From Chromera velia (taxonomy: Eukaryota > Sar > Chromeraceae), in assembly GCA_018398765.1 (NCBI GenBank), contig JAHBMJ010000128.1, forward strand, positions 1 to 41,069: a DNA stretch of 41,069 nt, in the 5' to 3' direction. The notes under the pieces are model-generated. The model worked only from the letters and a program-made list of their open reading frames with translations, did no database searches and was not told the DNA's origin. A program made the position numbers and the translations under genes. Below are positions 2,738-36,313 of the stretch, piece by piece. Positions within the stretch are counted from its first letter, which is position 1; each line of letters begins with the position of its first letter.

Positions 2738-3520
2738 GACTATAGTCTCATCTAGTCTCATATATAGTTACACGGATGTAGGTATGGATCGACTCACCAT
2801 GCACTGTGTAGCACTGAGCAACTATGCAGTACCATGCAGCGTCTTGTAATTAACTCTTTCTGTTACGTACTCATCGATCATAATTCACAAGAAATTGACT
2901 CCCAAAGCTAGTGTCAAAGTTTCATCAAAATCAGTAATTCAGAAATTATTTAGAATCAGAATTTAAAATAATTTCAAATAAATCTAGAAAACGATATGAA
3001 TTACTCTAAACTTAAACTTTTGTAAAATATTTTAAATCGAATTACCTAGGTACGTACAGACAACGCCGGACTACGTTGGACTGTATAGGGTAGTTTAAGG
3101 TGAAATTTCAGCTAAAGTTAGCACTGGCACGTTAACTAACCTTAATATATTATCTTTCCACTAACTTTTCTATCGAGATAAAAAAAAAAATAACTAGGAA
3201 AATAAATTTTTAAATTAATTCTTATGGATATAAAACTAAACTACATAAAAAAATAGCTAGAAAAATATGTGGATCGCCTGATAGTTTTGTGTATCAAATT
3301 ATATAAAAGTACCACTGACATGCATTAACATGCATACATCTAAGCATACATGATATGCAGATTTTATTAATGTCTAGGCCAATGTGGACCACAACCTAGA
3401 CCACAGCCTAATAATTTATAATAGCATACAGAATAGTTTATCTTTTGCGTTTGCGATTTGAACCCCTTTTCTGTATGACCACGTCTATTCGATCAATAAT
3501 ACCAAAAGTTTAATTGACGT
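2738..3520. other. AT-rich intergenic interval, nothing coding
   Basis: Markedly richer in A+T than its flanks, with A-runs and TATATA-like words and no frame longer than a few dozen codons. It separates the plus-strand Cys-rich gene from the minus-strand gene ending at 3530. I see no RNA gene, promoter motif or repeat with a known partner. Confidence 0.5.
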
Positions 3521-15300: not shown

Positions 15301-16537
15301 ATGCATAATCGACAACGGATGCCTTTTTTTTCATGTTCTTTGATTTACAGGTACAAGCACCCAAAAAGTGGAAGTTTTTGCCCCCACACTTCCCTTGCAG
15401 ACCATTTAGGATGAGTAGGTTGCTCTTACCGCAAAGACGCACCAATTCATCGCCCATGAGGTCGACTGACTGCTTGCATTCTGAATGCCGGATGAAAGAG
15501 GGAGCCGACTCGTCAGAGCCGGTAGATTTGTCCTGTTCAAACAGTTGCCCAGGATTCCATTCGAGACCTTCTGGACAGAGCGATGCTGTGTGAGAGTTGA
15601 GGTCTCCCAGGACCATTCTCGGCTCTCCCAGGGGGACAGAGCACAGGAAATCAGACAGGATCTCTTTCGTGTCATCTTTCTTATGATTTGACCAACCCCC
15701 CGGCAAATACACCCCAAACACATGCAGTTTTCTACCCGACAAATGGATGGCCACCCTGGCGATGCTCGGCCCTACTAGCTTAAACTCTGGTCTGAGCTCC
15801 CCCCAATGGTCCGATTTGACCAAAATGCATACGCCTCCAGACCGGATTTCTTTGTCTGCACAAGCGGAATGGACTTTTGTCTTTTTCTTTCTCCATTCCC
15901 TATGTGACCAATTTACTCCTTTCCAACCCCCCAGTTCTAGATCGCAGGACAGGTGCTGTGTTTCGACCAGAACCACAACATCCGCATCCGTTTCAGTGAG
16001 CCATGAACGGATGTCTCCATTTCTTATCTTCCGCTGCAATCCTCCCACATTGATGTAAGCAAAGCGTAGACGGTCCCGTGGGTGAGACACCGTCAAGTCC
16101 TGGTAGCAAGCATTCCCTCGCTTCTTGAACTTGCCTCTTCTCACCTTCCAATACTCCCTCACGGCTTTTTGTATGATTATTCTCTCATCCTCTGACCTTT
16201 CTTTTATTAAGTCCCTTTCTTTTACCCATTCGAGACCAGACTCAGGAGAACGCCTGATTTCAAACCATCTCTCACCACCATGCAACCTTTTATGCCCTAA
16301 TACAAGTAGAGGAGGAGAAAAAAAAGAAGAAGAAGAAGAACAAGAGGAGGAGGAGGGGGAGGAGGGGGGAGAAGAAGAATCCAAAAAAGAAGAAAAAGAA
16401 GAAGAAGACGATTTGGGAGGAGCATGCAAGGCAGCAGAGCAAAAGGAAGAAGAATCATTCAGAATATCATGATCTTTCCTTCGTTTCTTTCTCCTCCTTC
16501 TCTTACTACGTGGAACGAGGAATGTCAAGGCTGGCAC
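12329..16537 (-). pseudogene. LINE ORF2: AP-endonuclease / reverse transcriptase, disrupted
   Basis: The N-terminal AP-endonuclease fold shows its motifs in order: FAYINVGGLQ, VVVLVETQ, VFGVYLPGG, MVLGDLNSH, VVDYALV and the catalytic SDHDH near 15230. It runs to about 15150. RT motifs follow: KKAAGLDGIS, then DWRPVHVVNPLTKLFG, the catalytic FVDFSKAFDSI (about 13940), GDTLSPSLFLLFINDL and YADDLVLF (about 13645). A tail homologous to copy 2 closes it (DAAKTEARKM ending at a TGA at 12329-12331). Disruptions: in-frame TAG at 14660-14662; a garbled stretch around 14231-14320 where RT sequence is missing; TAG/frameshift near 14010-14090; TAA replacing the motif-B glutamine near 13783; TAG and TGA near 13280-13303; and a frameshift before 12901. 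Reverse transcription at the target is the family function; this copy cannot do it. Confidence 0.88.
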
Positions 16538-16573
16538 AAAAGAGGAAGGTCGATAAATAGGAGGGAGATCACC

Positions 16574-17152: not shown

Positions 17153-17460
17153 AAAAGAAGAAGGAGGAGAAGAAGAAGAAGAAGAAGAAGAAGAAGAAAA
17201 AGAAGAAGAAGGGTCCATCCAGTGGCCTAGTCTCTCCCCCCCCTCCCCTCCTTATCCGTTGCCCCCCTCGTTCCTTCCCTTGTCAGGTCCGGTGGAAGAG
17301 GAAGAAAAGAAAAGAGCAGACGAAGAAGAAGAAGAAGAAAAAGAAGAAGAAGAAGAAGAAGAAGAAGAAGAGGAAGCAGGAGCAGGAGCAGCAGCAGCAG
17401 CAGCAGCAGCAAAAAAAAAAAAAGAAGAAGAAGAAGAAGCAGAAGAAGAAGAAGAAGAAA

Positions 17461-17506
<46 letters not shown>

Positions 17507-18625
17507 AGGAGAAGAAGAAGAAGCAGGAGCAGCAGCAGCAGAAGAAGAAAAAAAAAAAGAAGAAGAAGAAGAAGAAGAAGTAGAAGTAGAAGAAGAAGAA
17601 GAAGAAGCAGCAGCAGCAGCAGCAGAAGAAGAAGAAGGGGAAGAAGAAGAAGACGAAGAGGAAGTGGAAGGAGAAGAGAAGGGAAAAGAAGAGGAAGAAG
17701 AAGAAGAAGAAGAAGCAAAGGGGGAAGAATTTCCAAAAGGATTCTGACATTTGCCCTGTCTTCCTAGAGAACAGTTCCAGCAAGCCCTTTTAAGCTTAGC
17801 GCACCTACAGCGGTTGCAGGTGCTATTCGCAGCACAACTACATTTGTAGCACTGGGTCCCCTCCTCCTTCAACTTCTTTCTCCCCGAGGCGTCCGGAGGA
17901 CCCGGGCCGTCACCCCCTCTTTTGTCTTTTCCTTTTTCATTTTCTCCATTCCCTTTGAAGCTTCTTCCATTACCCCCCTTTCCTTTCTCCCCCCGTCTAT
18001 CCGTTCCTTTCCTTGTCTCTTCATTTTCTTTCCCTCGTATCTTCCCCGTTGGTTGGTTCTTCCCCCCTCCCCCCACCCCAGTGAGAGAGAGAGGAAGAGG
18101 AAGTGAGAGAAAAGGAAAAGAAACATCGCATACATTTGTTACCTTCCATTTGATACCTTCTGCACTCATGTGTTCTTCTTTATCTAAAGAGATGACATTG
18201 TCAGCTACTCCGAGAGGAGAATGGCATGTATCGAGAGTCGATGCACCCGAGAGAGGCGAAGGTGTCCGACTTGTGTGAATGTCATGTATGATCACTGGAG
18301 AAGATGGCGTTCTGTCATACGTTCTTTGTCCAAAGTCTACCGAGAAGGCCTCTCTTCTATGCATGCACGAGCCGAGCTTACTGTGATCGCATACTTCATT
18401 CCCTTCCTGCCCGCCCAGAAAGTCCTCTTCTATGTCCCCCCCTCCAAGTTGCTGTTTCCCCTCCCCTCCCTTCAACCTCCCACCCTGACTCTTTGGAGTT
18501 CCCGTTTCCAACAAATCCGGAGGTCTTTGGCCCACCTCTTTCCAGAAGGCCATCCGCGAGTCCCTTTCCGTGCCCTCCTGAAGTGTCGCCCTGTCCATCT
18601 CCCTCCGCCCTGCCGTGACCTGCAC
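16574..18625 (-). pseudogene. LINE ORF1: Cys-cluster and Ser-rich protein, interrupted by TAA
   Basis: One minus-strand frame runs from 18625 to a TAG at 16574 with a single in-frame TAA at 17252-17254. The N-terminal half is charged and Gly/Lys-rich. A compact cysteine cluster near 17760-17860 reads CYKCSC, CNRCRC, CWNC with a final C-x-N, a plausible nucleic-acid-binding zinc module. The rest is Ser-homopolymer encoded by TCT/TCC codons opposite the GAA tract, then a Ser/Leu-rich tail. The position upstream of an endonuclease/RT frame gives the ORF1 call; the cluster is not a standard CCHC knuckle. ORF1 and ORF2 are in the same frame, separated only by the TAG and 12 codons. Confidence 0.7.
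17050..17730. repeat. GAA/GCA-rich trinucleotide tract inside LINE ORF1
   Basis: About 650 bp dominated by GAA/GAAG units on the plus strand with GCA blocks (17375-17410, 17530, 17605). A unique spacer lies at 17212-17290. It encodes Ser/Ala runs in the ORF1 frame; the Glu-run and Phe/Leu-run frames are artefacts. Confidence 0.9.
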
Positions 18626-18740
18626 ATAGGGGGAAGAGGGGGAAACTGTGTCTTCTCAGGAAAAGCATGAAGGGGAGCGCGATCAGAAACCTTCCCTGCC
18701 CTACTGACCGGCGTCGGATAGACCGTGGTTCCCCCTGTTA

Positions 18741-20236: not shown

Positions 20237-20308
20237 TCAATCAGACCGCCGAAGACCCGAAGAAGAAGAGAAAGAAGTGCATGCCGCCGCCAGAAAGCAC
20301 TGGTACAA
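20237..20308 (-). CDS. Receptor last exon (candidate)
   Basis: Acceptor ATTTTGCAG, then 23 codons from LYQCFLAAAC to SGLRRSD and TGA, in phase 0 with the preceding donor. If the donor at 20497 is not used, the frame simply reads 11 codons further to a stop at 20462. Confidence 0.35.
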   Translation of the reverse strand: MYQCFLAAACTSFSSSSGLRRSD

Positions 20309-22848
20309 CTGCAAAATCGAGGAAAGCACAAAGACAAACAAGAGTAGAGACAGAGCAAGAACGAGTCTCGGGATTGACTGTTGATTGCAGACAAAGTGAG
20401 TCAAACAAGAACTCCTCACCAAACAAAAAACACCTGAGAGAAAAAAACGGAGGAGAAAAAGTTAGAACGTGACCCCAACCGCTCCCTTTAATCTTACCTG
20501 AAGGACTTGTGCAGGGTGAAGGTGCAGAAAGAGCTCCACCCCCTCCTTAAACTCCCTCTGCGGTATCCCCTCGTCCCTCAAGGCCCTCTCAATCGAAGGA
20601 GAATCGAAAAACGCTCGTCCAACCGCCGACATCCTCCAAAAGCACCGCCTCTCCTTCTCACTCGCACCCTCCCGCAGCCACTCCTCCAACGAATCCACCA
20701 GCGCTCCTTGCTGACGCTCTGTGGTACCGTCCTGATGGAAGGCAATCAGTCGGTCAGTCAGGGCGCCGTCTGCCGTCTCTGCGTCCTCCTCCGTCCACTG
20801 CCTCTGCCTCTGGTGGAGGATCTGATCGTCCTCACCCCAGCCGCAGTTGGAGGAGCCCCCCCCTCTCTGTCCCTGGCTGTCACCCACAGCTGCGGCTGAC
20901 GGTTCTTCCTGCTGCTCACCCCTCCGCTTCCGCAACAGATTGCCTGACAGTGTGTGTCCCCCAATGAATCTTACCTTTTCTTCTTTGGTCTGGGTGCTTT
21001 TGTTCTCTTTCCTCTCTTCCCCTTTCTCCTCTGTCTCCTTCCCCTTCCGCTGATGGACAGGCTCGGACAAGGCAGGAACAGCAGAGGGTCCTTGTGGTGC
21101 GGCTTCTCCTGTGACAGAGGCAGGCACAGACGGGGCAGCACCCACTCCTGCACTCGCGACAGCGTCTCTACTTTCATGCGGATGCTCGCCGACAGCGTGT
21201 GCGACTCTCATTCTTCTCTCTGCGAATTCGAGGAGAGAGGGATCGTCTGAGAGGGGAAGGCTGTTGAGGGACAGGGAGGCCTCTCTCTCAGACTGATACT
21301 CAGACTCCCTCCCCCCTTCTCCTTCTTCAACGGCGGCAGCGACGGGGAGGGAGGCTGAAGCAGGCTCAGCAGCACCTTCTGAGTCCGCACGAGGGGGAGA
21401 AGGGGAAGGAGAGAATCCATCGATTAGGGCCACCTCTCTTCCTTCTGCTTTCCCTCCCGCGCCCTCCCCAGCAGGCTGAACGCCACCAAAAGCGCGAACA
21501 CTCTGTTCGCCCCCCTCCTCTGCCGGTGGCTGGAGGCCCGGAAAAGGGATTATCGGTTGACCTGGGCGGTCATGGCTGGAGTCTCCGGAGATGGGAGGGG
21601 CGACCGGGTGGGGGACCCTGAGCAGTTCTCTCACAATAGCACAGTGCTCTGCGGTCTCGTCACAAGAAGAGGCGATGAACCGCTTCTCGTTGTTTTCTCT
21701 CCTGCTCCCTTGGCTCATAGAAGCTCGAGAGAGGCAAATCATGCGGAAGGAGAAACTGGCGATGAAGGGGAGGAGACGGAGATCAGCAGGTGTCGAGCTG
21801 AGTGCCTCCCCACAGTCTTTCCCATTCGTCCTCCCAACACCCTCTACACCCCCTAGCCCTGCCTGTCTCGCCTTGTTTAGTCTTGCATTGACGCGCCGCG
21901 CTTGGGTGTCGATGATTTTCTCACACTTCTCAAAAAGCGCACCGTCAGATGGGAGCAGGGGCTCTCGGGGGATGACAAGATCCTCCCCCTTCACCCTTCT
22001 GTTTCGGTTCATCTCTCCCGTTCCCACCTTCCCCCCCCCTGCGGCTGCGAGGCGAGAAGACGGCTGCCGCATGGTCACCAGAGCGTGCCCCCCTTCCTGC
22101 AGGCAGAAGCGCAGCTCCTCTCTGCACATACACCACCGACAGCACTTCAGGGCCCTCAGCTGTCGGCAGCAACACGCTGCAACAGACAGACAGAAGCTGA
22201 AAGGTAGCAGCAGGAGTCTGTACAGAGACGCACCGACCCGCCTGCAATTGCAGCATGAGGGCCCCTTCTGCCCAGAGTCGCCGTCACAGCAGCGACAGCA
22301 CCGGAAGCTTCCGAGCACCCACCGCCAGATGCCCCCCCAGACCCTCTTCCACCACGGCACCTCCGGCACAGGCAGGCAGGTCCAAACTTGTCCTTCTTCC
22401 CCCTTTCTCTGTCTTTTTCTCAAGACGTTCTCCAGAAGGAATCTGACAACGATGAACCCCCCACAAACGGCACCAAACGAAAGAATCAGAAGGAATAGCA
22501 AGAGCACAAGAGCAACTCTCACCTCCAGAAGGATCGCTCTGTCCGTCACAACCTGCAAGAAATAGCGACCAAAAGCAACTCAGACGCGCACAGGCATGCA
22601 GGCAAGCCAACAGGCACACAAGCAGACACAGAGAACATATGTTTTCCTTCCTTCCTTCCCTCCTTCCTTCCTTCAATGCATCCGTCCATCCATCCATCTA
22701 CAGACAGGCTTTTTACCATTCCTTTTCGCTCTTCTGTTTTTCGGTCCCTGTGGTGGTGCAGACACAGGAGACAAAGAGTGAAGCAGGCAGATAAACAGAG
22801 AGGCAAGCAAGACAGTAAAACAAGCGGGCTAGGCGGCAGGCAGGCAGT

Positions 22849-22879
<31 letters not shown>

Positions 22880-24926
22880 AGAGACAGGCAGCCACATCGT
22901 TCTCATCGTTAAACAAACAGACAACCTTACAGACAGACACCCTGACAGAGAGACAGACTGTCATTCCCAGACACAGACAGCAAGAAGACCAATGCAACAG
23001 ACATCAAAAGAGACCGACGAGAGCAACGGGAGCAGAATTGATGGATAGATGGATGGATCGACGTCACCGCATCGAAACAGAGAAAAGAAAGAAAGAAAGA
23101 AAGTTTTAAGCCAGCCATTCTACGGCTGACTGACTGACAGACCGACCGACCCTCAGAATCACCACACCACAGAACCAAACGATGAGAGAGAACGTCTCCA
23201 GCCAGTTGAGGGCTGCAGACCTATACGGCCAGAGAAGCGTTTGAAGAAGGAGAAACAAGACGGCGTGGAAGTTCAAGATGGTGTACCGAGTGGACTCATT
23301 CTGTACAAGGAGAGCAAAGGGAATGCTCAAACGCCGTGCGTACACAACGAGTTCCCAGAAGATGAACCTATCGGAGTATCCAGATAGCAGCACACTGAAC
23401 CTTCGCTGAAAAGACCCCAGGTTCGCCCACACATTATGCAGCACCAATGCGTAGTAAGAGGGTTTCCTTCTCTCTGGTCTTGGCGGCAGCCGGCCGGCAC
23501 CCTTATGACCCTGTCCTGCTGCCCCCCCCCCCCCCCCCCCCNNNNNNNNNNNNNNNNNNNNNNNNNNNNCCCTCCGCCCCCCTCTGCCGTGCCCTCACGG
23601 AACTCCTCGCAGAGGCAATCGCCAGACAGACCCAGACAGGCACCCCAATGACCCCCGCAAGCAGGACACCCACAGACCAACCCTGCCAACGGGTGTAGGC
23701 GCGCACAGTCGGGCTGCACACAATGGAAGGGAATGTGTGGAGGCGGCGCTCCGAGAGGTCAGGGTGCAGAGGCTCGCACCTCAGGGAGGCGAGAGGGGCG
23801 CTGACGATGGACGGCGCCCACAAGAAAACCGTGGAAAGAATGACAGGGGTCATGTCCTGATGGAGAGACAGCAGCCGCACCCAGATGCTGGTCTCTCTAT
23901 CAAAAGTCCAACGGAAGACCCCTAACACTCGCCTGTTGTACGAAAGCCGCATGCAAAAGCGCTCACGAACCCACTCAAAGCTGTCAGAGAAAGAAGGAGA
24001 GACAGAGACGGTCCCCGCCGACCGCATCTCCAAAGGGGAAAGGTTCGCACCTCTGCTGGGCCCAGCAGCGGCACCAACTGCGCCCGCACCCCCCCCCAAA
24101 TTATCGGGAAGAGCACTGGGGGCATCCGCTTCAGGAGGAACTGTCACCATGCCCACTGTGTTTCTGCGAGTGGGTGGGAGAGCAATAGTGGAGCGTGTCT
24201 GTTCTCCGTCTCTCGATTCTCTCCCCTCCCCTTTCCCCTTTGCACCAGTGCAGTAGCTCGACAGAACCACCACCAGCCCGACAGAGCCGATCAAACCGAC
24301 AACCCCCAGCGGCACGAGGAGAGCGAGCATTTCCCGACCCGCCTCATTCTCCCCTGTCGACCAATCAAGGAGATCCATCAAGCACTTTATGCTGAACAGC
24401 TCTCCGATCGTGGGCAAACTGCGCAAGAAATCCAAAAACTCCTGCGCCGTCGTTGCCAAAAAAACCGCACCGCCCTCCATCGGATTTCCACCAGACGACC
24501 TCCCTTCTCCTCCCCCAACGCCCAAACCCCTCTCCGCGAGTTCTTCCCGAAAGACGATGAACGCGGGACGTGCGAGGTTCGCCAGGAAGCCCAGAGCTGT
24601 CAGAAACACCGTCAGGATCTTCGCAGCGATGGCAAAATCGGGCACGTCTTTTCTCGGGTTGTCCTTTGTGACCAAGCCTGTATAGCCGACCACCAGAGCC
24701 ACTGCCAAAAGGAAGAGCCCCACCCCCGCGACGATCGTCCGAGAGGCATCCGGGCACTCGCGGCACCGAATTTCTGTTCCCCTTCTCAACAGGTGTCGGC
24801 CCGTCTTGCACTCACTGCAAAGAGGCTGCATTCACACACACAAATTCTTTTTAACTGAATTGGACCCCAGAGAGAAAGAGGAGCTGGGCTGAAACGAAAG
24901 CATTGTCACCCTGAGACAGAGACCAA

Positions 24927-24963
<37 letters not shown>

Positions 24964-27900
24964 AGAGACTTCGAATCGACAAACAGCCAGTCATGCAAAG
25001 ACGACCACCCCAGTCTGAGAGTTAAGAAAGAGAACGCGAACGTCGGCAGAGTTATCTCGATCCCTTCACTGACTTACCCCTTCGTGTCCCTCTTCACAGA
25101 CAGTCCCAGCAGTCTCGTCTTGGAAGTGCCTCTGCACACTGCTGACAGCGTCGGCGAGGTCTTCGTGTCCGGGCTCGACAGAAGTGCAGGTGCCGTCGAA
25201 GGGGCACGGGACAACAACCGCGCGGGGCCAGCGCTGGACGAGGGAGAAGTTTCCGTGGGGGACGGGGCGGGGGTGCGCCATGAGTTGTTTCAGCGTCTGC
25301 TGGGAGCTGTCGAGTGACTGTGCCTCCAGGAGGCGCAAAGGAGAGAGGTGCTGCAGCTCGGTCCCGCACGAACCGTCACTACAAAGTTCCCAGCGGCGGT
25401 CTGCCTCCCTGCTTGTCAGAGCTTTCGGAAGGCGGCTCTGTTTGAGGACCTGAGACACTTGAGTGTCGGTCAGGAGCTGTCCACTGCATATGGAGTTGGG
25501 GGGGCAGGGTTCGCATGTGCCTGAGGTGAAGAGAGCAAGGGGTTTGTTCACTTTGTGCCAGTGAGAAATGATCTCTACAAGGGAGACGATCGGCTCTCCT
25601 TCAGAATTCTTCGTCTCGGGGGGAGAGAAGTAGAAACGTTCGACGCACCCGCACTGGGAAGGCAGCGTGGCCCCCCTCTGGCTGTGGCTGTTGAGGATGC
25701 ACTGCCTGCAGACGGAGGCGTCAGGGACAGAAGGGTCCCTGTAGAATCCCTCGTTGCAGAGACAGTCGAAGGAAGAGGTGCTCCCCCTCTTGCTCTGACT
25801 GTTGGAGTCGCAAGGACGGCATACGAAGCCCTCTTCTGGAGGGCTGCGGTAGAAGTTTTCCCTGCATCAAGGAAGGAAGGAAGGAAGGAAGGAAGGAAGG
25901 CATAAAAGGTGAGACAGCGGGGCAGGGTGGACAACTGGTGCGCAACGTGTTTTTCTTTTTTGCTCCCTTCGATGAATCTTTCTTTGGTTCTTTCTTTCTT
26001 TCTTTCTTTCCCTCTCTTTCTTTTTGCGGCGCGGTGCGGGTGTGTATGGGTGTATGAAGAAAAAGTCTCTTTGACGTTTTTGCCTGCAGCTGCAAGTGAG
26101 AGAAGGCGGAGAGGTAGATGTCTGGTGCGCATGTGACGGAAAGAGCTCCTTCGCTTTTCTTCTCTCCCTGGCGTATCGCTCTCTTGTTTTCCGTTTGCGT
26201 GGAAGAAACAGGAAAGATTCTCTGGGCAAGACCCAGTGATCTTCTCTGCATCAAACTGTTGTCCGTGTAAGCGACAGACAGACAAACAGACTGAGGGACT
26301 GACATGCAGAGGCAGGGTGAGTCCACAGTCATTCTGTCGGCGTTGGAGGGGCACCTGTCTGCCGTGACGACGATTGTGCAGTTACCGGTGTTGCCTGCCT
26401 TGTCGGTCCCTTCTACCAGAACGTTGAGGGTCTCCTCCGACGAGAAGTGTCGCTGCAGCTCTGACCCATTGGGGGTCCTGAAGGAGAGACGGACGTCGTC
26501 GGGGAGGTCCACGTTGTCACTGACAGTCGGATCGGCTAAGGAGAGGACCGGGGTCTCTCTGCTGATCTTCAGAGGGACTGGAGATGCGCAGGTCATCTGC
26601 GGGGGCTCTCGGTCTGCCCCCATGTAGAAAGGGAATCAGTTCCCACACAGGCAGAGGCAGGGGACAGTCGCTCTCAATTCAGTGAACCTTTTGTCTTTTT
26701 GATGGTTTCTTCTTCAGTCTGCTGATGCATTGAGCCAGCCGACCAGTCAGTCCGTGAGTACGACCATGAACGAGAAACCAGCATGGGTAGAGGCGCTTCT
26801 CAAAAAGGAGAAGGGGGGCATGGGGGAGGGTGGAGGAAAAGGGCAAGAGGGGTCAGAAAGGTGGAAAGGAAATTGCATGAGAAACGATCAAGTTTTCGTC
26901 CGGACGGTTGATGCTACTTCCCGTCTTCGTTTTCTTTTTTGTTTGCTTGCTTTCATTTATTCATTCATTCATCCATTCATTTATTGATTGTTTCTTTCTT
27001 TCTTTCTTGTCTGTCTGTCTGTCTGTCTTTTCTTCTTTTTTTCTTCCGCAGTCGATGGTTTTCCTTCTTCGACTTCGCAAAAGCAGCTACTGAGACTGAC
27101 CGACCGATAATTCCGACAGTGAATTCGCACGTGCCTTCATTCTCTCGTGAGAGAGAGTCTATCAGTCGCACTCGGATCTTCTCAGGCTTCCCAACGTCAA
27201 AGAGCCGCGGCTCAACGGGAGGGGAGAACTTGATGTGAATTCGGGAGGCGCTGTTGCCCTGAAGGTCTCCTTCTCCTTCACGGTCGAGAGAAGAGAACGG
27301 AAAGGGGAAGAAGCGGGCGAAGGAAGCCCTCGAGGATCTCCAGAAGGATGCACCGCGGTCGTTCTGGAAGTGAATTGCCGGAGAGGGACACTGAGTCGTC
27401 ACTGCACACATAAGAATGTTCACGCAGACACACATTTTCTCCCTCCCTTCCCCTCTATCTCAGCCGCTCTTTTACACAAAGAGACAGAGCCACACACACA
27501 CACACACACACACACACATGCACAGACGCGGGGTGTAAGACGGGTGGGGGAGGGATGCTGTGCTGCGTGGCCGCACAAGAACTCCTCAATAGATGAAACA
27601 TACTCCTTTCATACCTACCTACAGATAAACAGAAAAAAAAAAGAAAGCAAGAGAGAGAGAGAGGGGNGGGGGGGGGGGGGGGGGAGAGAGACAGAGACAG
27701 AGACAGACAGACAGAACCAGCCAGACAGACAGAACCGGCCATCCAGACACAGGGCGGCAAAGGGAGCCGACACGACATGAAGGAGGAAGTGGCCAGCTCA
27801 ATTGTCTAAACAAACAACCCCCCAGGAGGGTCGATACATTCTTTTGGTGTCTGGGGCTATTCAAGAACGTGTGAATGCGTGGATTTGTGGATCCATGTAT

Positions 27901-29732
27901 CTATGTCATTCGAAATATGCGTCTGCCCGATTCCAGACCCCTAAGTATGAAAATTTCTATTTCAATAGAGAAAAGATCCTGCTGATTGACCCTTCACACG
28001 CAAACACGTGTACACATCCTGGCCCCGACTCACTCAAGAGGGGCACAAGCGAGAAATCCCGACCAGTCAGACCGCCCCCTTCACCCAAACCGAGCTGTCC
28101 TTCCTCGTTCCTCCCTGCACCCACCACTCCGCCCCCAGTGATCAGGAGCGAAGAGAGAGACCCAGACCCCCCCTTCCACAGCCTCTCCACCCTGACTCCT
28201 TCAACCTCCCGAGGCTCTCTTTGAGTGGTCGTTTGGCCGTAAATGCCGTCATTGTTCGAACGCCCAAGGTAGAACACCCTACCGTCTCCCACTCGAACGA
28301 CTAAATGACTCACACCCGCTGCGATCTCTACGGCTCCTCCCGGGAGCTTCTCCAACGGCTGGGGAGTTGAAGAGAAGGATCCTAATGTGCCTCCGATATT
28401 AGACCCAAACCGAAAAACCTTTCCAGAGGAAGTGAGGACCAAAGAGTGAGTTTGACCCGCCGCCACTGCAACAACTCTCTCCCCTCCCGTCCCAACAAAA
28501 ACCTCGACAGGCTTAGTCTCTCTCTCGCCCCTCCTCCCATCCCCCAGTTGACCCAGAAAGTTCCACCCCCAAGAGAAGAGCCGCCCAGAACGGCAGGCGA
28601 TGAGTGTGTGACTGCCTCCCAGGGCCACCTGCGTGACGGCTTCTCCCTCCAGCACCGCCGCACTCACAAGAGAGGCATTGCGCCGGGTCTCTCTGTCTCC
28701 AAGGCCGAGCTGCCCGTGCTCTCCCCGCCCCCACATGAATAGGTTTCCCTCTTCTGTCCAGGCGGCACTGCAAGCAACCAGGCAGAAAGGGAAACAGAAA
28801 GAAATGTGACCGGATTGTTTAAAAAAAAAAAAACAAGCAGAGCAGCGAGGAGGCAAAGAATGCAGACAGACAGACAGACAGACAGACAGACAGGCAGACC
28901 TGTGACTCCCCCCACACGCCACGCCAACGACCCTCTCGCCCTCCAGTCCTTCCACAGGCAGCGGCCTCCAGTCACTCCAATCTCCCCACACCCATCCACT
29001 CCCACGCCCGAGTTGTCCGAAACTGTTGTCACCGAATGAGACCACCGTCCCGTTCCCCAACAGAACCAGAGAGAAGGAGAATGCGTGCCCTCCCCCTCCG
29101 CAAACGTCGACGACGTCGGAGAGAGAGGGCACTCTCGTCGGCAGTCTGAAGTTCCCTATGTCCTCCAGCCCCAGCTGGCCGTCCCTGTTGGAACCGAAGA
29201 CAAAAAGGTCTCCCCGGTTGTCAACCATCAAAGAATGTTTGCCACCTTGCGCGACGAGTGAGGGGGAACCGACTGCAAGCACGACGGGAAACACCGTGTC
29301 CTCTCTCTCTCTCTGCGTGAGTGTCCCATTTCTTAGACACATGCGACATTCAAATGAACAAACACAGAAATGCGCCTACACCCATGCGTGCACGGAGGTG
29401 AGAGAAAGCGAGAGACAACATTGTCGTGCAGCCCTGACGGTCGCAATTCAGAGGCAGCGTGCAGTCAAAAAAGTGCAAAAGGCAAACAAGGAAACAGGCA
29501 GTGGAAGCTTGCACAATTTTGCACATGGGTACGGAAATGATGGGAAACATGCAAATGGGAGCAGGCAACCAAGAAAAACAGGGAGAGAAGGGGAGAGGAG
29601 AGAAGATAAAGGGCGAGAAGCGACGGAGCGTGGAATAGAGAGGAGAAACACAGAGAGCGGAGAGGGAAGGAGAGAAAGGGAGAGAGCCAGAGAGAACAAA
29701 AGAGGGAGAGGGAGAGGGAGAGGGGGAGAGAG

Positions 29733-29767
<35 letters not shown>

Positions 29768-30029
29768 GAAAGAAAGAGATGCGAAGACGCGAGAATTAAA
29801 GAGAACAGACGGGAGAACTGTCAAAATGCTAGAAAACAAAAGCTGAAGAGAGAGAGGCACGCAACCGACCAACCACAGAGAGTCCCGTCGCCACTGCTGG
29901 AGGTGCCCTGAGGGCACTCGCAGACAAACGACCCGACGGTGTCTCTGCAAATCGCACGAGCGTCACAGTGCCCTTCCGCCATCACCGCACACTCGTCGAG
30001 GTCGAGCGCTGGGAGACAGACAGACAGAC

Positions 30030-30060
<31 letters not shown>

Positions 30061-30078
30061 GAGAAAGACGCACTCACA

Positions 30079-30120
<42 letters not shown>

Positions 30121-33100
30121 GAGAGAGAGAGAGAGAGAGAGACCATTCAGGGCAATGCGCATGCACGGCAAGCCTACTCAACACATCAATAGGGCAATCA
30201 TTATGCTCTCCTCTGTCAAATGAGAAGAAATTTACTTGTGCCGACTCACTTCCACATGCGTATACCATGACAGAGATATAGAATCTTTGCGGGTATGCAT
30301 GTCATCACACATGCAGGTCTTGAGGAAGCATATACGTACATGACTGTCCGTATGTATTGAAGAACGAAGGAAATCGTGTCTTCTTTGCCATGATCTACAG
30401 CCCGCCTGCTTCCTTCCATTCATCGTCTATCGATGCAAGGCCTCCCTGTCCCATTTGCTCCCCTACTCCCATCACTGTCTAAAGAGAACACATGGGCACG
30501 TGCAATTCCCGACTCATCTAAAAGGGACACAAACGAAAGCTTATCTCGATGACTTAGACCCTCCCCCCCACCCAAACCGAGCTGTCCTTCTTCGTTCCTC
30601 CCTGCACCAACCACTCCGCCCCCAGTGATCAGGAGCGAAGAGAGAGACCTATACCCCCCCTTCCACAGCCTCTCCACCCTGACTCCTTCAACCTCCCGAG
30701 GCTCTCTTTGAGTGGTCGTGTGGCCAAGTCCCAGTTCCCCGTTCTCGTTTTTCCCAAAGGAGAACACCCTTCCGTCCTTCACACGAACGAAAGAGTGACT
30801 CCCACCCGCAGCGATCTCTACGACTCCCTCCGGCAGCTTCTCCACCCACTGGGGAGTCGAAAAAATATCCTCAGAGCTCCCCAACCCCAGTTGGCCATAC
30901 TCATTATCCCCAAACCCCAAAACCTTTCCGGAGGAGGTCAGGATCAGAGAGTGATCCGCACCCGCCGCCACTGCAACAACTCTCTCCCCTCCCGTCCCAA
31001 CGAAAACCTCGACAGGACTAGCCTCTCTCTCAAGATCCCCACTTCTCCCATTCCCCACCTGCCCAGCATCATTCTTCCCCCAAGAGAAGAGCCGTCCAGA
31101 GCGGCAGGCGATGAGGGTGTGCATTCTTCCCAGGGCCACCTGCGTGACGGCTTCTCCCTCCAGCACCGCCGCACTCACAAGAGAGGCATTGTGCCGGGTC
31201 TCTCTGTCTCCGAGGCCGAGCTGCCCGTCCTCTCCCCGCCCCCACATGAATAGGTTTCCCTCTTCTGTCCAGGCGGCACTGCAAGCAACCAGGCAGAACG
31301 GAGAAAGCACAGTTGATCAGCAGAGAAAAAAAAAATCAAACAGACCAAACCACACCAGCGAAAGGACCCTCCCTGCAACATCTCGTCTGCCATTCAGGGA
31401 AGGGAGAAAAAATTGACCGGATTTTTTTCCAAAAAAAGAATCAGAGCAGCGAGGAGGCAATAATGCAGACAGACAGACAGACAGACAGACAGACGGGCAG
31501 GCAGGAAGGCAGGCAGACAGACAGGCAGACCTGTGACTCCCCCCACACGCCACGCCAACGACACTCTCGCCCTCCAGTCCCTCAACAGGCAGCGGCCTCC
31601 AGTCACTCCAATCTCCCCACACCCATCCACTCCCACGCCCGAGTTGTCCGTAGTAACGATTGCTACCGGAAGAAAGCACCGTTCCGTTCCCCAACAGGAG
31701 CAGAGAAAAGTCCGAGCCCCCGCAAACGTCGACGACGTCGGAGAGAGAGGGCACTCTCGTCGGCAGTCTGAAGTTCCCTATGTCCTCCAGCCCCAGCTGG
31801 CCGTCCCTGTTGGAACCGAAGACAAAAAGGTCTCCCCGGTTGTCACCCATCAAAGAATGTTCGCCACCTTGCGCGACGAGAGAGGGGGAACCGACTGCAA
31901 GCACGACGGGAAACACCGTGTCCTCTCTCTCTCTTTCTCTTTGTCTGCGTGAGTGTGTGTGTGTGCGTGTGTTATGTCGTAGACACGCGCCACATTCAAA
32001 TGAACAAACACAGAAATGCGCCTACACTCATGCATGCACGGAGGTGAGAGAAAAAGAGAGACAACGTTGCGCTCCAATTCAGAAGTGGTGTGCAGTCACA
32101 AAAGGGCCAAAGCCAAAGTTCAAAGATTCTCCATCAGAATACAAGTCGATACGAATGATTTGAATCCCGGTTAAAATTCATGCAAGAAAAAGAGAACACA
32201 AACGTAAACAGATAAGGAAAGGGGGAGGGAAAAGAAGACGGCAATCATGAATGACTGAAAAAAAAAGAAAAACGGATGAGCGGGGCGAAATAGAGAGGGG
32301 TAGAGAGGGAGAGAGATGAGAGACCTTCTGGTCGCTCCACCGTGACAGTCAGGTTGAAGCTGCTGCCGTCACCTCTCTGGCCGACGACGACGAAAACTTC
32401 CGAGCTTCCCCTCTCCACAAACGACACCCGCGATCTTCCGTTCCCGCAACTGTTCTTGAAGTCCCAAACGCCGCCATCCCATCCCTCACATTGACAGACA
32501 GAGGAATCAGAGGGACACCCTGCCCCTGACAGAACTCCAATTATCGTGTTTACCTGCAGGTCAAGTCACATGAGAGAAAAGAGAAAGGACACGTCGGGGA
32601 TGAATTCATCATACTTGATGCACTGAATGATACTAAAGAAAGCAGAAACAAAAAAACCAAGCGCGGTCTGCCTGCCTGAAATACACCGAAGGAAAAAACA
32701 AACTCAGCCACCATACAGATTCGATGACTCCAAGTCCATATTGTGGCTGCTCTGAAGAAATCTACGGTGTATCTGAGTAATGAAAGGAAGCGCCCGAAAT
32801 CTGAACTGAACCATCTCACGAGACACGGCAGCATTTTTTAGAAAAGGGCCAACAGAAGCGAATGCACAACACCACACCCACACACCGCAAGAGAAACAAG
32901 GACAGAGAAAGAGAAGACGCTGACCGATGTGCCAGTGCAGGTATCCACAGAGACAGCAAGGAGACGCCCATTCGATTCGGGAAGCCGGAGCCTGTACCAG
33001 ACCCCAGGCCTCGAAGCGCTACCCCCGCACTCCCCAAACTCTCCATCCCCCGTCGCCCTCTCCCAGTTTCCCTCCACAGAGGTTGTCTCCATCCCTTCTG

Positions 33101-36100
33101 TGAGGGCAGGAGAGAAGCGATTGGAGAGGTGAAAGGCGGTCTCGAGGGTGTCGTGAGAGTGGGGGGCTGCAGCAGGTTGGGAGGAAGGTGGGACGGAGCA
33201 GCTGACACAACCAAGTTCAGGAGCTTGATCGAAGTACAGAAGCTGATTTTATACCAGAAGCGCTCAACTTTCACGAAGGGCTTGCCTCAGACAAAGTGAT
33301 CATCGTCATTCTAACGTATCCTCAAAGGAATGCTTTTGACACCGGAGCAAAGGCAGAGAGAAGAAGCAAAAAAAGGCAGACCTGAGAGCGCCACGGTCAG
33401 GTTGAAGTTGCCTCTGTCTTCCCACTCATACGGACGGACGAGGACATACAGCTCGGACCCCCCTCTCTCCAAAGACGCGAACGGCAGCTCCCGATAGTTA
33501 GCCGACCCCTTACACTCACAGGCGGAGGAATCAGAGGGACACCCGGTCCCCGACAGAACCCCAATGACCGCCTTTGCCTGCAGGACTCTCACGAACACGC
33601 ACCATTCAGACAGACGCGCATCATGAACTTGCAGACAAAAGTGACTCCCTCTCTCTTCATGCTGAAGCACTCCGTCATCCATATAATCTTCTGACCGACT
33701 GCCCCATGGAAAAGGCAAACAAACAGAGACCCCAAGGCGCCGGTCAATAAAGCGAGGCAAAAAACAACACAGGAGTCACTGATGTTGTCTACATACATTC
33801 ATATTGACACATGCAAGTACAAGGAAAGCCGGACAAAACCTGAATTCACCGACCAATGTGTACAGGGAGACGGCCACAGGGCCACTTGAGGGGGGAACAG
33901 AGAGAGAGAACCAGACGCCAGGAAAGGAGTCAGAGCTGCCTCCACAGTCCGCAAAGTCAGGGTCTCCCGTCGCCCCCAACCACACTCCTTCCACAGAGGT
34001 TGTTTCAGCCCGTCCTTTGAGAGCAGGCGAGAAGCGGTCGGAGAGGTCAAAGGCGGTCCGGAGGGTGTCGTGGGGGTGAGCTGCATGGTGAAGGGGGAGA
34101 GGGAATGATGGGAAGCTCCGTCACTAGAAACATAGAAAGCGCGTTGCTCCTTTGGGCATACAAACACTGACTGAGAAGGACAGGGAACGGAAGGGGCGGG
34201 GGGGGACGGAACAGGCCGGTGTGCATACACGCATCCATCCCACATGGTTATGCTAGAACAGGAAGTGACACAACCAGATGTCAATTACTGGAAGTCTCTT
34301 CATGACATGACAGGGCTCTCTGTTCGGCCCTTCCGCTCTTCATTTCATTGTCGCTTCCTTGAGACAAGTCTCTCTTACTTTCTGCCCGCCCTCCGTGATT
34401 TTTGTTTGACGCGTTTTCTTCACACGAGAATATGTTTGTTGGCAGGTCCGTCTGAAATGTTCTCTGTCAATCAATTAGTCTATCTCTCTGTCGGTTCACA
34501 CCTTCATACATTCTGTGTGTAGGAGCATCTTACAGAAATAGCCAGTTTATCCGCTCCCTACATCGAGCTCTTTCCTCCGCCTTTCTCCGAACCAACTCCA
34601 TGCACACAGAGAGAAGGGGGGCAGAGAAAAGCCATCACACACACAAGTCCCTCCCCACCTGCACACGTCAAATAGCGACTTCCCGCAGCAACCACCAGCT
34701 GCCCCCCCAGGCACTGCATCTCCGTGAAGCATTCACCGCCGCCTCTCCACCGCCCCCCCTCCCCGAGTCTGTAACTACACACAAGCCCCTGAGGGCACTG
34801 CAGGTCCAGCCTCTGTGCCACAAAGCCGACAGACAGAGGACCGTCAGAGCTCCGCGACAACAGCGGGTGGAGGCCGGAGACGTTCAGAGAGGAGAACTCA
34901 ACGGGAACGTCGCACGTCTCTGCACGCACACAGAGAAAGGAGGGCACGGACAGGTTCTCAGGCACAGTTGCGTTGCACGTCTCTGCATGTGGATAGATAG
35001 ATGGGAACGGGGGATTTGATGGAGGCGTGGAGAATGAGACACAAGGAGACGCAGGGCAGATCAGAAAGGGAGAGCGAGCAGAGCAGACAGAAAAAGGGAG
35101 GGGGTGGGGCAAATCATTGTCAGAGGAGGAAAGGAGGAGTGTAGAGGAGAAAAGCAAAGAGAAAGAGGACAGAACGGTGACAGACCTGAGAGCATCACAG
35201 TCAGGTTGAAGCTGCGATCGTCATGGCTGCTTCTGTAAGGACGGACGACGGTAAAAATCTCCGACCCCCCCCCCCTTCACAAACGACACCCGCGACTGCG
35301 GACCAAAATAATTATCGTTCCACCCCTCACACACACAGGCAGAGAAGTCAGAAGGACACGCCGCCCCCGAGAGCACACCCACCACCGTGTCTGCCTGCAG
35401 GACGCAGAGGGGACACAGAGCGATCAACTGCATCCCCGAAAAATGGGAAAAGGAGGTCCCACTGTCCTTTGTGTCTGGGTCTTCACATTCACAACGTATC
35501 GCAAAGCATGCATGCCATCGGTGAAATACAAGCGCAAAAAAGCACGGAAGGCACCATACATCGTTGCCACGCCCTGACCCATGCCACTGATGCGTGCGCC
35601 AAAACAACCAACCCCCAAGACTGGCCGTTGTGCCAGTGAAGGTGTCCACAGAGACCCCCAGAGGTCGGCTCGACTGGGGGAGACGGAAGCGGAACCAGAC
35701 ACCAGGACGAGAAGAGTCACCGCCGCACTCCGAGAAGTCAGGATCCCGTCGCCCTCTCCCAGTTTCCCTCCACAGAGGTTGTCTCTATCCCTTCTGAGAG
35801 GGCAGGAGAGAAGCGGTCGGAGAGGTCGAAGGCGGCCTGGAGGGTGTCGTGAGGGTGAGGGGCTGCAGGGCATGGGAACGCGAAAGGGAGCGACGGAGGC
35901 ATTCCTGACTGGAGAGACACAGAGCGTTGTCCTTCTGACGCACAAAAGCCGGGAGGGACGAGGCAAGAAAGAGAGCAGGCAGACGAGGAAGAGGAAACAG
36001 CTCTCCTCTCCTACCCTCCCCTCTGTCTCCTTGGCACAACATTTCCGTGACACATTGATGATCCTTTACTTGTGTCCTCCATCTCTGTGGTTTCTCTTTC

Positions 36101-36313
36101 TGGATGTCGACAAGTCAACAGTCGGATATAAATAGAAAGGAAGAGAAGTTCTTCTCTTTCTTTTTCGTCATCCACCACCCACCTTGACCCGGAGCAAATC
36201 CGGAAGACAGAGAGAGCAGAACCACAAAACACCAGAGGAGACTCTGAACGGAGGCGCCAAAAGTGCGCGGACGGCGGAGACGAGAGACCCCAACCAATTC
36301 TGAAATTTTGCTC
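20237..36313 (-). CDS. Giant mosaic receptor-like membrane protein (~3,100 aa, ~20 exons)
   Basis: Reconstructed minus-strand exons: 36313-36183, 35862-35626, 35394-35186, 34982-34659, 34080-33854, 33577-33382, 33166-32925, 32553-32325, 31894-31531, 31278-30500, 30008-29874, 29272-28900, 28767-28016, 27401-27105, 26613-26304, 25861-25078, 24825-23599, 23510-23151, 22552-20498 and 20308-20237. Phases match at every join once two frameshifts in exons 2-3 are allowed for. Domain order: signal peptide (LLWCFVVLLSLSSGFAPGQ), PPC-like 1, linker, PPC-like 2 and 3, RCC1 propeller, EGF, RCC1 propeller, HYR x2, Cys-rich stalk, multi-pass membrane region, cytoplasmic tail. The layout indicates a plasma-membrane protein with a large adhesive or sensory ectodomain; ligand and signalling partner are unknown. 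The first exon with the ATG is not resolved: the 36313 exon enters in phase 2, and ATG...CTAGG|GTCCGG near 37020-36980 is one phase-compatible candidate. The exons around the N gap and the last exon are the least certain. Confidence 0.75.
20498..22552 (-). CDS. Receptor exon: last membrane pass and cytoplasmic tail
   Basis: A 685-codon exon starting VVTDRAILLEV after TTGCAG. The hydrophobic VALVLLLFLLILSFGAVCGG is the last clear pass, followed by a palmitoylation-prone Cys-rich patch (CCRCCDGDSG, CCNCRR, CCCRQL, CCRWCMCREEL). The remaining ~500 residues are hydrophilic, Pro/Glu/Ser-rich and probably disordered. A helical end has SLEEWLREGASEKERRCFWR. No kinase, phosphatase or cyclase motif is present. 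Donor is CTTCAG|GTAAGA. Confidence 0.7.
23151..23510 (-). CDS. Receptor exon: membrane region, second part
   Basis: Reads RKPSYYALVLHNVWANLGSF, then GYSDRFIFWELVVYARRLSI, hydrophobic stretches, LLWPYRSAALNWLETFSLIV and WFCGVVIL. The Y-x-x-x-x-FWE-x-x-x-x-x-R-R and PY-x5-N-x-LE-x-x-S patterns recur in C-terminal membrane regions of protist GCC2/GCC3-type proteins, as far as I recall that family. Donor is AGG|GTCGGTCGG, in phase 0. The acceptor beside the gap (GACAG|GGTCAT) was chosen for phase. Confidence 0.65.
23542..23569. other. Assembly gap in a poly-C tract
   Basis: Twenty-eight N directly after about 19 C (plus strand) and before CCCTCCGCCCC. It lies in an intron of the receptor gene between 23511 and 23598. 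The true intron length is unknown. Confidence 0.95.
23599..24825 (-). CDS. Receptor exon: membrane region, first part
   Basis: Opens with PLCSECKTGRHLLRRGTEIR and CREC, completing the GCC2/GCC3-type pattern. Hydrophobic segments follow: TIVAGVGLFLLAVALVVGYT, then IAAKILTVFLTALGFLANLA, LLVPLGVVGLIGSVGLVVVL, PVILSTVFLWAPSIVSAPLA and GVLLAGVIGVPVWVCLAIAS. That is about five membrane passes joined by charged or Gly-rich loops. The donor TTCC|GTGAGG is inferred; the following intron contains a poly-G/C run and the assembly gap. Confidence 0.7.
24930..24962. repeat. (GA)n microsatellite
   Basis: Dinucleotide run within the receptor intron 24826-25077. Comparable simple tracts occupy other introns: (GAAG)n at 25867-25903, (CA)n at 27491-27518 and 30074-30117, (GA)n at 29727-29763, (GGCA)n at 22833-22879, (GACA)n at 28863-28892 and 31465-31494. 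Confidence 0.85.
25078..25861 (-). CDS. Receptor exon: ephrin-receptor/GCC2-GCC3-like Cys-rich stalk
   Basis: Cys-rich repeats: GFVCRPCDSNSQSKRGSTSS, FDCLCNEGFYRD, CRQCILNSHSQRGA, CGCVERFYFSP, then TCEPCPPNSICSG and, later, CPFDGTC. The C-x-C-x-x-G-F/Y and C-x-x-C-P-x-N-S-x-C spacing matches the GCC2/GCC3 and tyrosine-kinase-ephrin-type modules common in protist membrane proteins. It ends EEGHEG|GTAAGT, phase 0, and continues PLCSECKTG in the next exon. Confidence 0.75.
26304..26613 (-). CDS. Receptor exon: HYR domain 2 plus first Cys-rich residues
   Basis: Reads DREPPQMTCASPVPLKI, LADPTVSDNVDLPDDVRLSF and GTDKAGNTGNCTIVVTADRC. This is a textbook HYR layout: PPxxxC, PTVSDN, then GTDKAGN-x-x-x-C. 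The exon continues into SPCLC, the first cysteines of the stalk, and ends in phase 2. Confidence 0.8.
27105..27401 (-). CDS. Receptor exon: HYR (hyalin repeat) domain 1
   Basis: A phase 1-1 exon starting TTQCPSPAIHF and ending FDVGKPEKIRVRLIDSLSRE with ENEGTCEFTVGI. The N-terminal Cys-Pro and C-terminal G-x-C-x-F-T-V pair, with the intervening V-G-x strand, fit HYR domains, Ig-like folds of cell-adhesion proteins. Sequence between is more divergent than in HYR 2. Donor is ATCG|GTCGGT. Confidence 0.6.
27653..27684. repeat. GA/poly-G tract with one undetermined base
   Basis: GAGAGAGAGGGG, an N at 27667, then 17 G. It lies in the intron between propeller B and HYR 1. Length is likely unreliable. 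Confidence 0.85.
28016..29272 (-). CDS. Receptor exons: RCC1 propeller B (tandem duplicate of A)
   Basis: Exons 29272-28900 and 28767-28016 with the same internal phase-2 intron and same borders as propeller A. Blades 1, 3 and 7 are almost identical to A. Blades 4-6 diverge (GWNFLGQLGDG, GSNIGGTLGS, GRSNNDGIYGQ), and the fifth-sixth junction is shorter. Exon 1 is nine bases longer (HAFSFS in place of DFS near 29090). The aligned donors GGAT|GTGTAC (B) and GCAC|GTGCCC (A) close both cassettes in phase 1. Confidence 0.84.
29874..30008 (-). CDS. Receptor exon: EGF domain, calcium-binding type
   Basis: A 135-bp phase 1-1 exon reading DLDECAVMAEGHCDARAICR then DTVGSFVCECPQGTSSSGDG and TLC: six cysteines with the D-x-D-E-C start and the C-x-D-T-x-G-S-F/Y-x-C-x-C core of EGF_CA. 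It sits between the two RCC1 propellers. The acceptor directly follows a (CTGT)n tract ending CTCCCAG; the donor is TGTG|GTTGGT. Confidence 0.85.
30500..31894 (-). CDS. Receptor exons: RCC1 propeller A (seven blades)
   Basis: Exons 31894-31531 and 31278-30500 join in phase 2 inside GGSH-SAAWTEEG. Seven RCC1 blades are readable, each ending in a G-Q-L-G-like turn: GSNRDGQLGLED, GQLGRGSG, GRGEDGQLGLGD, GKNDAGQVGNG, GDNEYGQLGLG, GKNENGELGLG and GRNEEGQLGLG. Alternating VxxVAxGxxHS strands (VVGVACGGSH, VVAVAAGADHS, VVEIAAGGSHS) confirm the family. RCC1 folds act in GEF, chromatin or protein-binding roles; its place in a signal-peptide-bearing ectodomain points to a binding surface instead. Bounded by phase-1 introns. 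Confidence 0.85.
32325..33166 (-). CDS. Receptor exons: PPC-like module 3
   Basis: Exons 33166-32925 and 32553-32325. First half: SHDTLETAFHLSNRFSP, ECGGSASRPGVWYRLRLPES, VSVDTCTGTS. Second half: NTIIGVLSGAGCPSDSSVCQ, SRVSFVERGSSEVFVVVG, SFNLTVTVERP. This is the best-preserved of the three modules and serves as the reference for reading the breaks in module 1. Donors are TCG|GTCAGC and GAAG|GTCTCT. Confidence 0.62.
33382..34080 (-). CDS. Receptor exons: PPC-like module 2
   Basis: Exons 34080-33854 and 33577-33382. The first half carries HPHDTLRTAFDLSDRFSP and SFPGVWFSLSVP; the second IGVLSGTGCPSDSSACECKG and RGNFNLTVALSG. The C-x-G...PGVW(F/Y) ... SDSSxC ... FNLTV pattern resembles the pre-peptidase C-terminal (PPC) beta-sandwich repeats of secreted proteins. 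An intron splits the module between halves (phase 0) and phase-1 introns bound it. The 5' donor of the internal intron was chosen as ATTG|GTCGGT because it alone gives phase 0. Confidence 0.6.
34659..34982 (-). CDS. Receptor exon: Cys-containing linker between PPC-like modules
   Basis: A phase 1-1 exon of 108 codons starting ETCNATVPENLSVP, with eight or more cysteines and Asn-x-Ser/Thr sites. It is unlike the neighbouring modules and I do not recognise the fold. Acceptor is CACATGCAG; donor is TGTGCAG|GTGGGG. Confidence 0.55.
35186..35394 (-). pseudogene. Receptor exon: PPC-like module 1, second half, with +1 in a G11 run
   Basis: Starts ADTVVGVLSGAACPSDFSAC, equivalent to the second halves of modules 2 and 3. 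An 11-base homopolymer (35265-35275) shifts the frame by one. With ten bases the downstream frame would read on into SFNLTVMLSG, as in the paralogues. Donor is CTCAG|GTCTGTC, phase 1. Confidence 0.65.
35626..35862 (-). pseudogene. Receptor exon: PPC-like module 1, first half, with 2-base deletion
   Basis: Begins PHPHDTLQAAFDLSDRFSP, matching modules 2 and 3. At 35741-35747 the sequence reads GACGGGATCCTGAC where the paralogous exon has GACGGGAGACCCTGAC, so two bases are missing and a TGA follows. After the break the frame resumes with DFSECGGDSSRPGVWFRF. Restoring two bases makes the exon length fit the phases at both ends. The donor aligned with module 3 is ACG|GCCAGT, a GC rather than GT. 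Confidence 0.65.
36183..36313 (-). CDS. Receptor exon: signal peptide
   Basis: Exon between TTTTGCAG and CAAG|GTGGGT. A basic stretch (RLRRPRTF) precedes the hydrophobic core LLWCFVVLLSLSSGFA; cleavage is likely near APGQ. It ends in phase 1, matching the next exon, whose first residues (APHPHDTL) start module 1. Confidence 0.65.

What the first reader, a model, noticed from the sequence alone, without database searches (positions are those of the whole stretch)
20237..36313. A ~3,100-residue receptor with two RCC1 propellers inside a PPC/EGF/HYR ectodomain
RCC1 propellers are known mainly from nuclear and cytoplasmic proteins (RCC1, HERC, UVR8) and some bacterial secreted proteins. Here two complete seven-blade propellers lie after a signal peptide, flanked by EGF_CA, HYR, PPC-like and GCC2/GCC3-like modules, upstream of a multi-pass membrane region. 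All 20 inferred exons agree in phase (allowing two small indels), which makes a single gene very likely. The combination looks like an undescribed surface receptor or adhesin architecture.
Basis: partly seen in the sequence, partly recalled or inferred. Interest (0 to 1): 0.88.

Follow-up and report, generated by a model that had tools for sequence, protein, structure and literature searches.

The report
Algal surface receptor with RCC1 propellers
A photosynthetic relative of malaria parasites carries a family of very large membrane proteins that appear to hold propeller-shaped RCC1 domains, best known from inside cells, outside the cell on a many-pass membrane anchor; they may be sensors, but their function is untested.

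Summary
Minus-strand 36313-20237 is one gene: the public collection already has a model of it from Chromera velia CCMP2878 (UniProt A0A0G4F642, 2803 aa, "HYR domain-containing protein") that agrees with my exon model over the shared part. The module order recurs at five other fetched loci of this genome, so chance juxtaposition of separate genes is very unlikely. RCC1 and EGF_CA pass Pfam cut-offs. The PPC-like modules match no Pfam family by sequence, but their predicted fold matches collagenase PPC-type domains. HYR is below cut-off; GCC2/GCC3 is unrecognised by Pfam. In this copy the first PPC-like module has two frame breaks and the signal-like exon lacks an ATG.

[quoted passage not shown] CRMP membership is not shown. 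RCC1-type ectodomains are already known in plant receptors, and "many diverse CRMPs" in Chromera are mentioned in print. New variant of a known kind.

The parts
36183..36313 (-). Hydrophobic signal-like exon (no in-frame ATG in the exon)
   Evidence: exon model; similar exon at C3568 15520-15642
35186..35862 (-). PPC-like module 1 (two exons, two frame breaks)
34659..34919 (-). Cysteine-containing module of unknown family (CYS)
   Evidence: 44-67% identical copies at C292, C3287, C3568; no Pfam match
33382..34080 (-). PPC-like module 2 (two exons)
32325..33166 (-). PPC-like module 3 (two exons); its fold was predicted
30476..31894 (-). RCC1 propeller 1 (two exons, seven blade motifs)
   Evidence: Pfam E=1e-69. 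The 3' end is uncertain: the public model uses an earlier donor
29874..30008 (-). Calcium-binding EGF domain
   Evidence: Pfam EGF_CA E=3.2e-9
28034..29272 (-). RCC1 propeller 2 (two exons, two degenerate blades)
   Evidence: Pfam E=6.1e-52
27105..27401 (-). HYR1: module of unknown family in the position before the HYR-like domain
   Evidence: no Pfam match
26304..26613 (-). HYR2: HYR-like domain
   Evidence: Pfam HYR E=0.0025, below cut-off
25078..25861 (-). Cys-rich GCC2/GCC3-like region with a conserved HPRPVPxxNFxLVQRWP motif
   Evidence: no accepted Pfam match
23151..24825 (-). First multipass exon; interrupted by a run of N at 23542-23569
20498..22552 (-). Last transmembrane segments and cytoplasmic tail with conserved blocks
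20237..20308 (-). Last exon in the public model (my model had a short alternative, 20416-20433)

Best explanation
One gene of Chromera velia encodes a very large multipass surface protein. Shown: the module order (PPC-like x3 with one Cys module, RCC1, EGF, RCC1, HYR1, HYR-like, Cys-rich region, a row of hydrophobic segments, long tail) and its recurrence in paralogues. Inferred: the N-terminal half is outside the cell; the PPC-like beta-sandwiches and RCC1 propellers are the ligand-binding heads; the HYR-like and Cys-rich parts are a stalk; the multipass core and conserved tail pass the signal inward, in the way proposed for CRMPs, whose ectodomain is thought to sense contact or surroundings and trigger regulated exocytosis. 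Symmetric phase-1 modules would let heads be duplicated and swapped on a constant base.
Against: Sequons are not significantly enriched in P0001, the window protein (10 vs 8.0, reached in 128 of 500), or in P0002 (103 of 500). No search linked the multipass core to a known CRMP. The AF2 model of the core is poor (mean pLDDT 44.7). Eight or nine hydropathy peaks, depending on how neighbours are split, clear the threshold before the tail, so a count of nine is not firm. PPC-like module 1 is frame-broken and no start codon was found here, so this copy may be damaged. PPC-like modules also occur without RCC1: 9 of 16 contigs have no RCC1 hit within 12 kb downstream. No expression, localisation or ligand data were seen.
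Confidence: 0.6

Rival explanations
1. It is a surface adhesin or cell-wall/matrix-anchoring protein: the heads bind glycans or matrix and the multipass part is only an anchor, without signalling.
For: The PPC-like fold matches matrix- and carbohydrate-binding beta-sandwiches.
Against: A long tail with conserved blocks and a conserved multipass core suggest more than an anchor.
Confidence: 0.2
2. The multipass core is a channel or transporter gated or localised by the ectodomain, not a receptor of CRMP type.
For: Core homology is unresolved: no PDB sequence match, no Pfam match.
Against: No channel or transporter family was matched either; Cys-rich ectodomain plus C-terminal multipass region is the described CRMP layout (PMC9815656).
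Confidence: 0.15
3. This particular copy is a decaying pseudogene of a functional family.
For: Two frame breaks in PPC-like module 1, no ATG in the signal-like exon, degenerate blades in propeller 2, a GC donor.
Against: The other exons are open apart from the N-run; between the two propellers dN (0.121) is below dS (0.232), a weak argument. One break is in a poly-G run and the N-run lies beside poly-G, so assembly error is possible.
Confidence: 0.2
4. Several neighbouring genes read as one.
For: No transcript evidence was available here; the public model is itself a prediction.
Against: Same order at five other fetched loci, the public model spans the parts, phase-compatible introns.
Confidence: 0.03

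Closest known systems
Cysteine repeat modular proteins (CRMPs) of Apicomplexa and ciliates
   Same: Large Cys-rich ectodomain with EGF-like parts, C-terminal multipass region, cytosolic tail; extra binding domains at the N-terminus in apicomplexans; Chromera is said to have many diverse CRMPs (PMC9815656 section 6 and passages; PMC9670195 passages).
   Different: RCC1, PPC-like and HYR domains are not among the domains named for CRMPs in the section, passages and Fig. 1 legend that I saw; sequence homology of the core was not shown.
CRINKLY4 (CR4/ACR4) receptor-like kinases and other plant RCC1-type receptor-like proteins
   Same: Extracellular seven-bladed RCC1-like propeller next to a Cys-rich TNFR-like domain on a membrane receptor (PMC4617170, passages); a class labelled RCC1-RLK/RLP is listed in PMC9603095 (passages).
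   Different: CR4 has a single transmembrane helix and a kinase; crinkly repeats are only distantly related to RCC1; no PPC-like or HYR parts are described in the passages seen.
Nd6p, RCC1-like exocytosis protein of alveolates
   Same: RCC1-type protein linked to regulated exocytosis in alveolates (PMC9815656 introduction passage; reference 41 of PMC9159632).
   Different: From recall, Nd6p is not a multipass modular receptor; not compared here.
PPC / collagen-binding domains of bacterial collagenases
   Same: Predicted fold of the PPC-like module; that collagen-binding domains belong to the PPC type is recalled.
   Different: No relevant Pfam or NCBIfam match and no PDB sequence match for 14 copies.
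UniProt A0A0G4F642, A0A0G4HPQ8, A0A0G4ICE9, A0A0G4FDY1
   Same: The gene itself and three paralogues at C3287, C3899 and C292.
   Different: Automatically named; the first three lack N-terminal modules that their loci hold.

Membership tests
CRMP | EGF-like / ephrin-receptor-like Cys-rich ectodomain | tested here: inconclusive
   EGF_CA met; no PF07699 match at E<=1 in the window piece and none listed on C128 (candidates capped at 150 of 154); weak hit to an Ephrin_rec_like protein (P0005, E=0.0037).
CRMP | Nine C-terminal transmembrane segments (apicomplexan CRMPs) | tested here: inconclusive
   Eight or nine hydropathy peaks before the tail, a conserved sub-threshold segment (FWELVVYARRLSIPFALL) and one peak in the tail; AF2 model unreliable.
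CRMP | Sequence homology of the core to known CRMPs | tested here: inconclusive
   Three searches returned only Chromera relatives plus two marginal hits, P0005 and P0007 (E=0.0094); the search from P0004 missed even P0002, so this is a weak negative. No CRMP sequence was compared.
CRMP | Signal peptide / exposed N-terminus | tested here: inconclusive
   Hydrophobic N-terminus in P0004 and similar exons at C3287 and C3568; no ATG in the window exon; no signal-peptide predictor was run and topology was not tested.
CRMP | Role in regulated exocytosis | not testable with these tools
   Needs mutants.
RCC1 propeller | RCC1 repeats over Pfam cut-off, about seven blades | tested here: met
   231.4 and 174.4 bits vs 21.7; 7 and 6 motif hits.
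PPC (PF04151) | Match to the Pfam profile | tested here: not met
   0 of 14 copies at E<=1.
PPC (PF04151) | PPC-type beta-sandwich fold | tested here: met
HYR (PF02494) | Match over the Pfam cut-off | tested here: not met
   18.5 bits vs 21.7 for HYR2; none for HYR1.
CRINKLY4 receptor kinases | Cytoplasmic protein kinase domain | tested here: not met
   No kinase match in the whole proteins P0002-P0004 or in the first 788 residues of the window core and tail; the distal window tail was not scanned.

The most novel reading that the evidence does not exclude
Chromera has a diversified receptor family in which interchangeable heads (PPC-like arrays, one or two RCC1 propellers, others) are set on a constant HYR/Cys-rich/multipass base, a free-living counterpart of the CRMP contact sensors of apicomplexan parasites, with propellers doubled and homogenised inside each gene. 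It would show RCC1 propellers used as exchangeable recognition heads in alveolates.
Probability: 0.35. Interest if true: 0.75.

Novelty: new variant of a known kind. Interest (0 to 1): 0.52.

Why it matters
CRMPs are proposed to link host contact to rhoptry discharge, and what their ectodomains bind is stated as an open question (PMC9815656, passage). A free-living relative with a large set of differently headed multipass proteins would give an ancestral-state comparison and testable binding heads. It also adds an alveolate case of RCC1 propellers in a likely extracellular position.

Tried and rejected
Separate genes: rejected by conserved order in paralogues. UBX: the HYR2 piece scores above the UBX cut-off (26.9 vs 21 bits), but over 34 of 82 profile positions and inside the HYR-like stretch; taken as a false positive. 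TNFR_ELAPOR1 in the Cys-rich region is a chance-level hit (E=0.42). Positive selection between the two propellers: dN/dS is about 0.5 overall; one of 18 overlapping 40-column windows has dN slightly above dS (0.213 vs 0.181); divergence is patchy, as gene conversion would give. In a tree of 10 propellers from the window and six other loci, propellers of one gene group together: window pair 0.930, C3287 pair 0.965, C3568 pair 0.973; propeller hits shorter than 180 aa were dropped, so C3899 and C4005 have one each. Core fold: the AF2 model was too poor to search, so no fold search was run on it. Core relatives outside Chromera: none found beyond two marginal hits, a weak negative. PDB sequence searches with the core, one PPC-like module and the PPC-like profile: none. 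A review likely to treat Chromera extracellular proteins (10.1017/S0031182015001213) is not held, so earlier description there cannot be excluded. No signal-peptide or transmembrane predictor other than a Kyte-Doolittle script was available.

Full report
What is there. The window is G000:C128:1-41069 of a 177.8 Mb assembly. The gene is on the minus strand. The public protein search identifies it as Chromera velia CCMP2878, UniProt A0A0G4F642, 2803 aa, named only "HYR domain-containing protein". I had built an exon model before that from splice sites and phase: 19 exons, 9280 bases. The public model aligns at 99.6% over its residues 1-2045 and at 97.6% over 2026-2780 to my residues 192-2244 and 2327-3084. 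It is a prediction, not a transcript.

Gene structure. Read from the exon frames, all nine introns between modules (signal|PPC1|CYS|PPC2|PPC3|RCC1|EGF|RCC1|HYR1|HYR2) are phase 1. Introns inside PPC-like modules are phase 0, inside propellers phase 2, and the introns after HYR2 are phase 2 or 0. The signal-like exon has a hydrophobic stretch but no ATG. A similar exon at C3568 has none either, and one at C3287 has; P0004 is annotated with a hydrophobic N-terminus.

A paralogous family. I fetched seven loci, six because PPC-like and RCC1 hits lay together and one (C864) because RCC1 and HYR did; that part of their co-occurrence is selected, but the downstream parts are an independent check. tblastn of window pieces finds the Cys-rich region in 7 of 7, the core in 6 of 7 (not at C3736; weak at C864), the tail in 4 of 7 (C3568, C3287, C3899, C4005), and where parts are found they lie in the same order on one strand. 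RCC1 on both sides of an EGF is seen at C3568, C3287, C3899 and C4005; C292 has one RCC1 block and no EGF hit. CYS is found at C292, C3287 and C3568 only; HYR1 is not found at C4005 or C864. P0002, P0003 and P0004 are annotated proteins of C3287, C3899 and C292.

A common base. A genome search with the Cys-rich region gave 37 matches; I counted 33 after leaving out four second exons of the same genes. Of these 33, 18 have a Pfam-detected HYR within 3 kb upstream, 13 have RCC1 within 15 kb (11 within 4 kb; the two at 13-14 kb could be other genes), and 7 have PPC-like within 25 kb. About 0.06 RCC1 neighbours are expected by chance under a simple coverage estimate. Seven of 16 PPC-like contigs have RCC1 within 12 kb downstream and nine have not. 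So RCC1 heads are one variant on a HYR/Cys-rich base, and PPC-like modules also occur elsewhere.

Evolution of the propellers. The two window propellers are 80% identical over the second-exon part, with 83-85% DNA identity and patchy divergence. In a tree of 10 propellers those of one gene group together (0.930, 0.965 and 0.973 for the three genes with two long hits), pointing to duplication or homogenisation within genes. No clear sign of positive selection was seen.

Orientation. Sequon enrichment is clear in two of four ectodomains (P0003, P0004), not significant in P0001 and P0002, and absent in all four tails. This gives partial support for an extracellular or luminal N-terminal half.

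How it may work. CRMPs are described as large Cys-rich proteins with EGF-like domains and C-terminal transmembrane regions (nine predicted in Toxoplasma and Plasmodium, five in Tetrahymena). They are needed for rhoptry discharge in Toxoplasma and mucocyst discharge in Tetrahymena, the N-terminus of TgCRMPa is exposed, and they are proposed to act as contact or environment sensors (passages of PMC9670195 and PMC9815656 and section 6 of the latter). PMC9815656 states that many diverse CRMPs are found in Chromera. The present protein has the same layout with different heads. I infer, but have not shown, that it works in this way. Woo et al. (PMC4501334, passages and section 55) describe chromerid extracellular proteins; the main text has no occurrence of RCC1, HYR, ephrin or CRMP.

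Prior knowledge. RCC1-like propellers next to a Cys-rich TNFR-like domain are known in the ectodomain of plant CR4 receptors (PMC4617170, passages), and classes labelled RCC1-RLK and RCC1-RLP are listed for plants (PMC9603095, passages), so the idea that such propellers can serve a receptor outside the cell is not new. Searches for RCC1 with HYR or with the other modules found no paper with this combination (in one search the one paper with RCC1 and 'hyr' has 'hyr' only in 'hyrolase'), in a library that lacks most subscription journals.

Verdict. Real, single gene, member of a family found here only in Chromera; the combination is unusual; the function is inferred by analogy; CRMP membership is open.

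Noticed in passing
13305-16573, minus strand: Remains of a non-LTR retrotransposon downstream of the gene: endonuclease-like ORF (14663-16573, Exo_endo_phos E=5e-6) and reverse transcriptase (13305-13781, RVT_1 E=1.5e-14).
   Followed up: partly
17255-18655, minus strand: ORF with long Ser/Ala low-complexity tracts and a short Cys-rich stretch (CYKCSC...); no Pfam match at E<=0.01.
   Followed up: no
about 34982-34950, minus strand: By eye, a short imperfect duplicate of the 5' end of the CYS exon, with its own AG, just upstream of the real exon at 34919.
   Followed up: no
26304-26613: The HYR2 piece scores above the Pfam UBX cut-off over a partial profile; probably a false positive.
   Followed up: no
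G000, several contigs (e.g. C3287:69-70k, C3445, C1807, C3659): HYR followed by the same Cys-rich region without a listed RCC1 hit nearby: other heads on the same base.
   Followed up: partly
G000 C864 17-25k: Divergent relative: RCC1, EGF, HYR, Cys-rich region and a core 27% identical over 91 residues.
   Followed up: partly
20.5-22.5 kb and paralogues: Two conserved blocks in the cytoplasmic tail (around DLRLLPF...AEHCAIVRELL and QWTEEDAETAD...) with no known domain in P0002-P0004.
   Followed up: no
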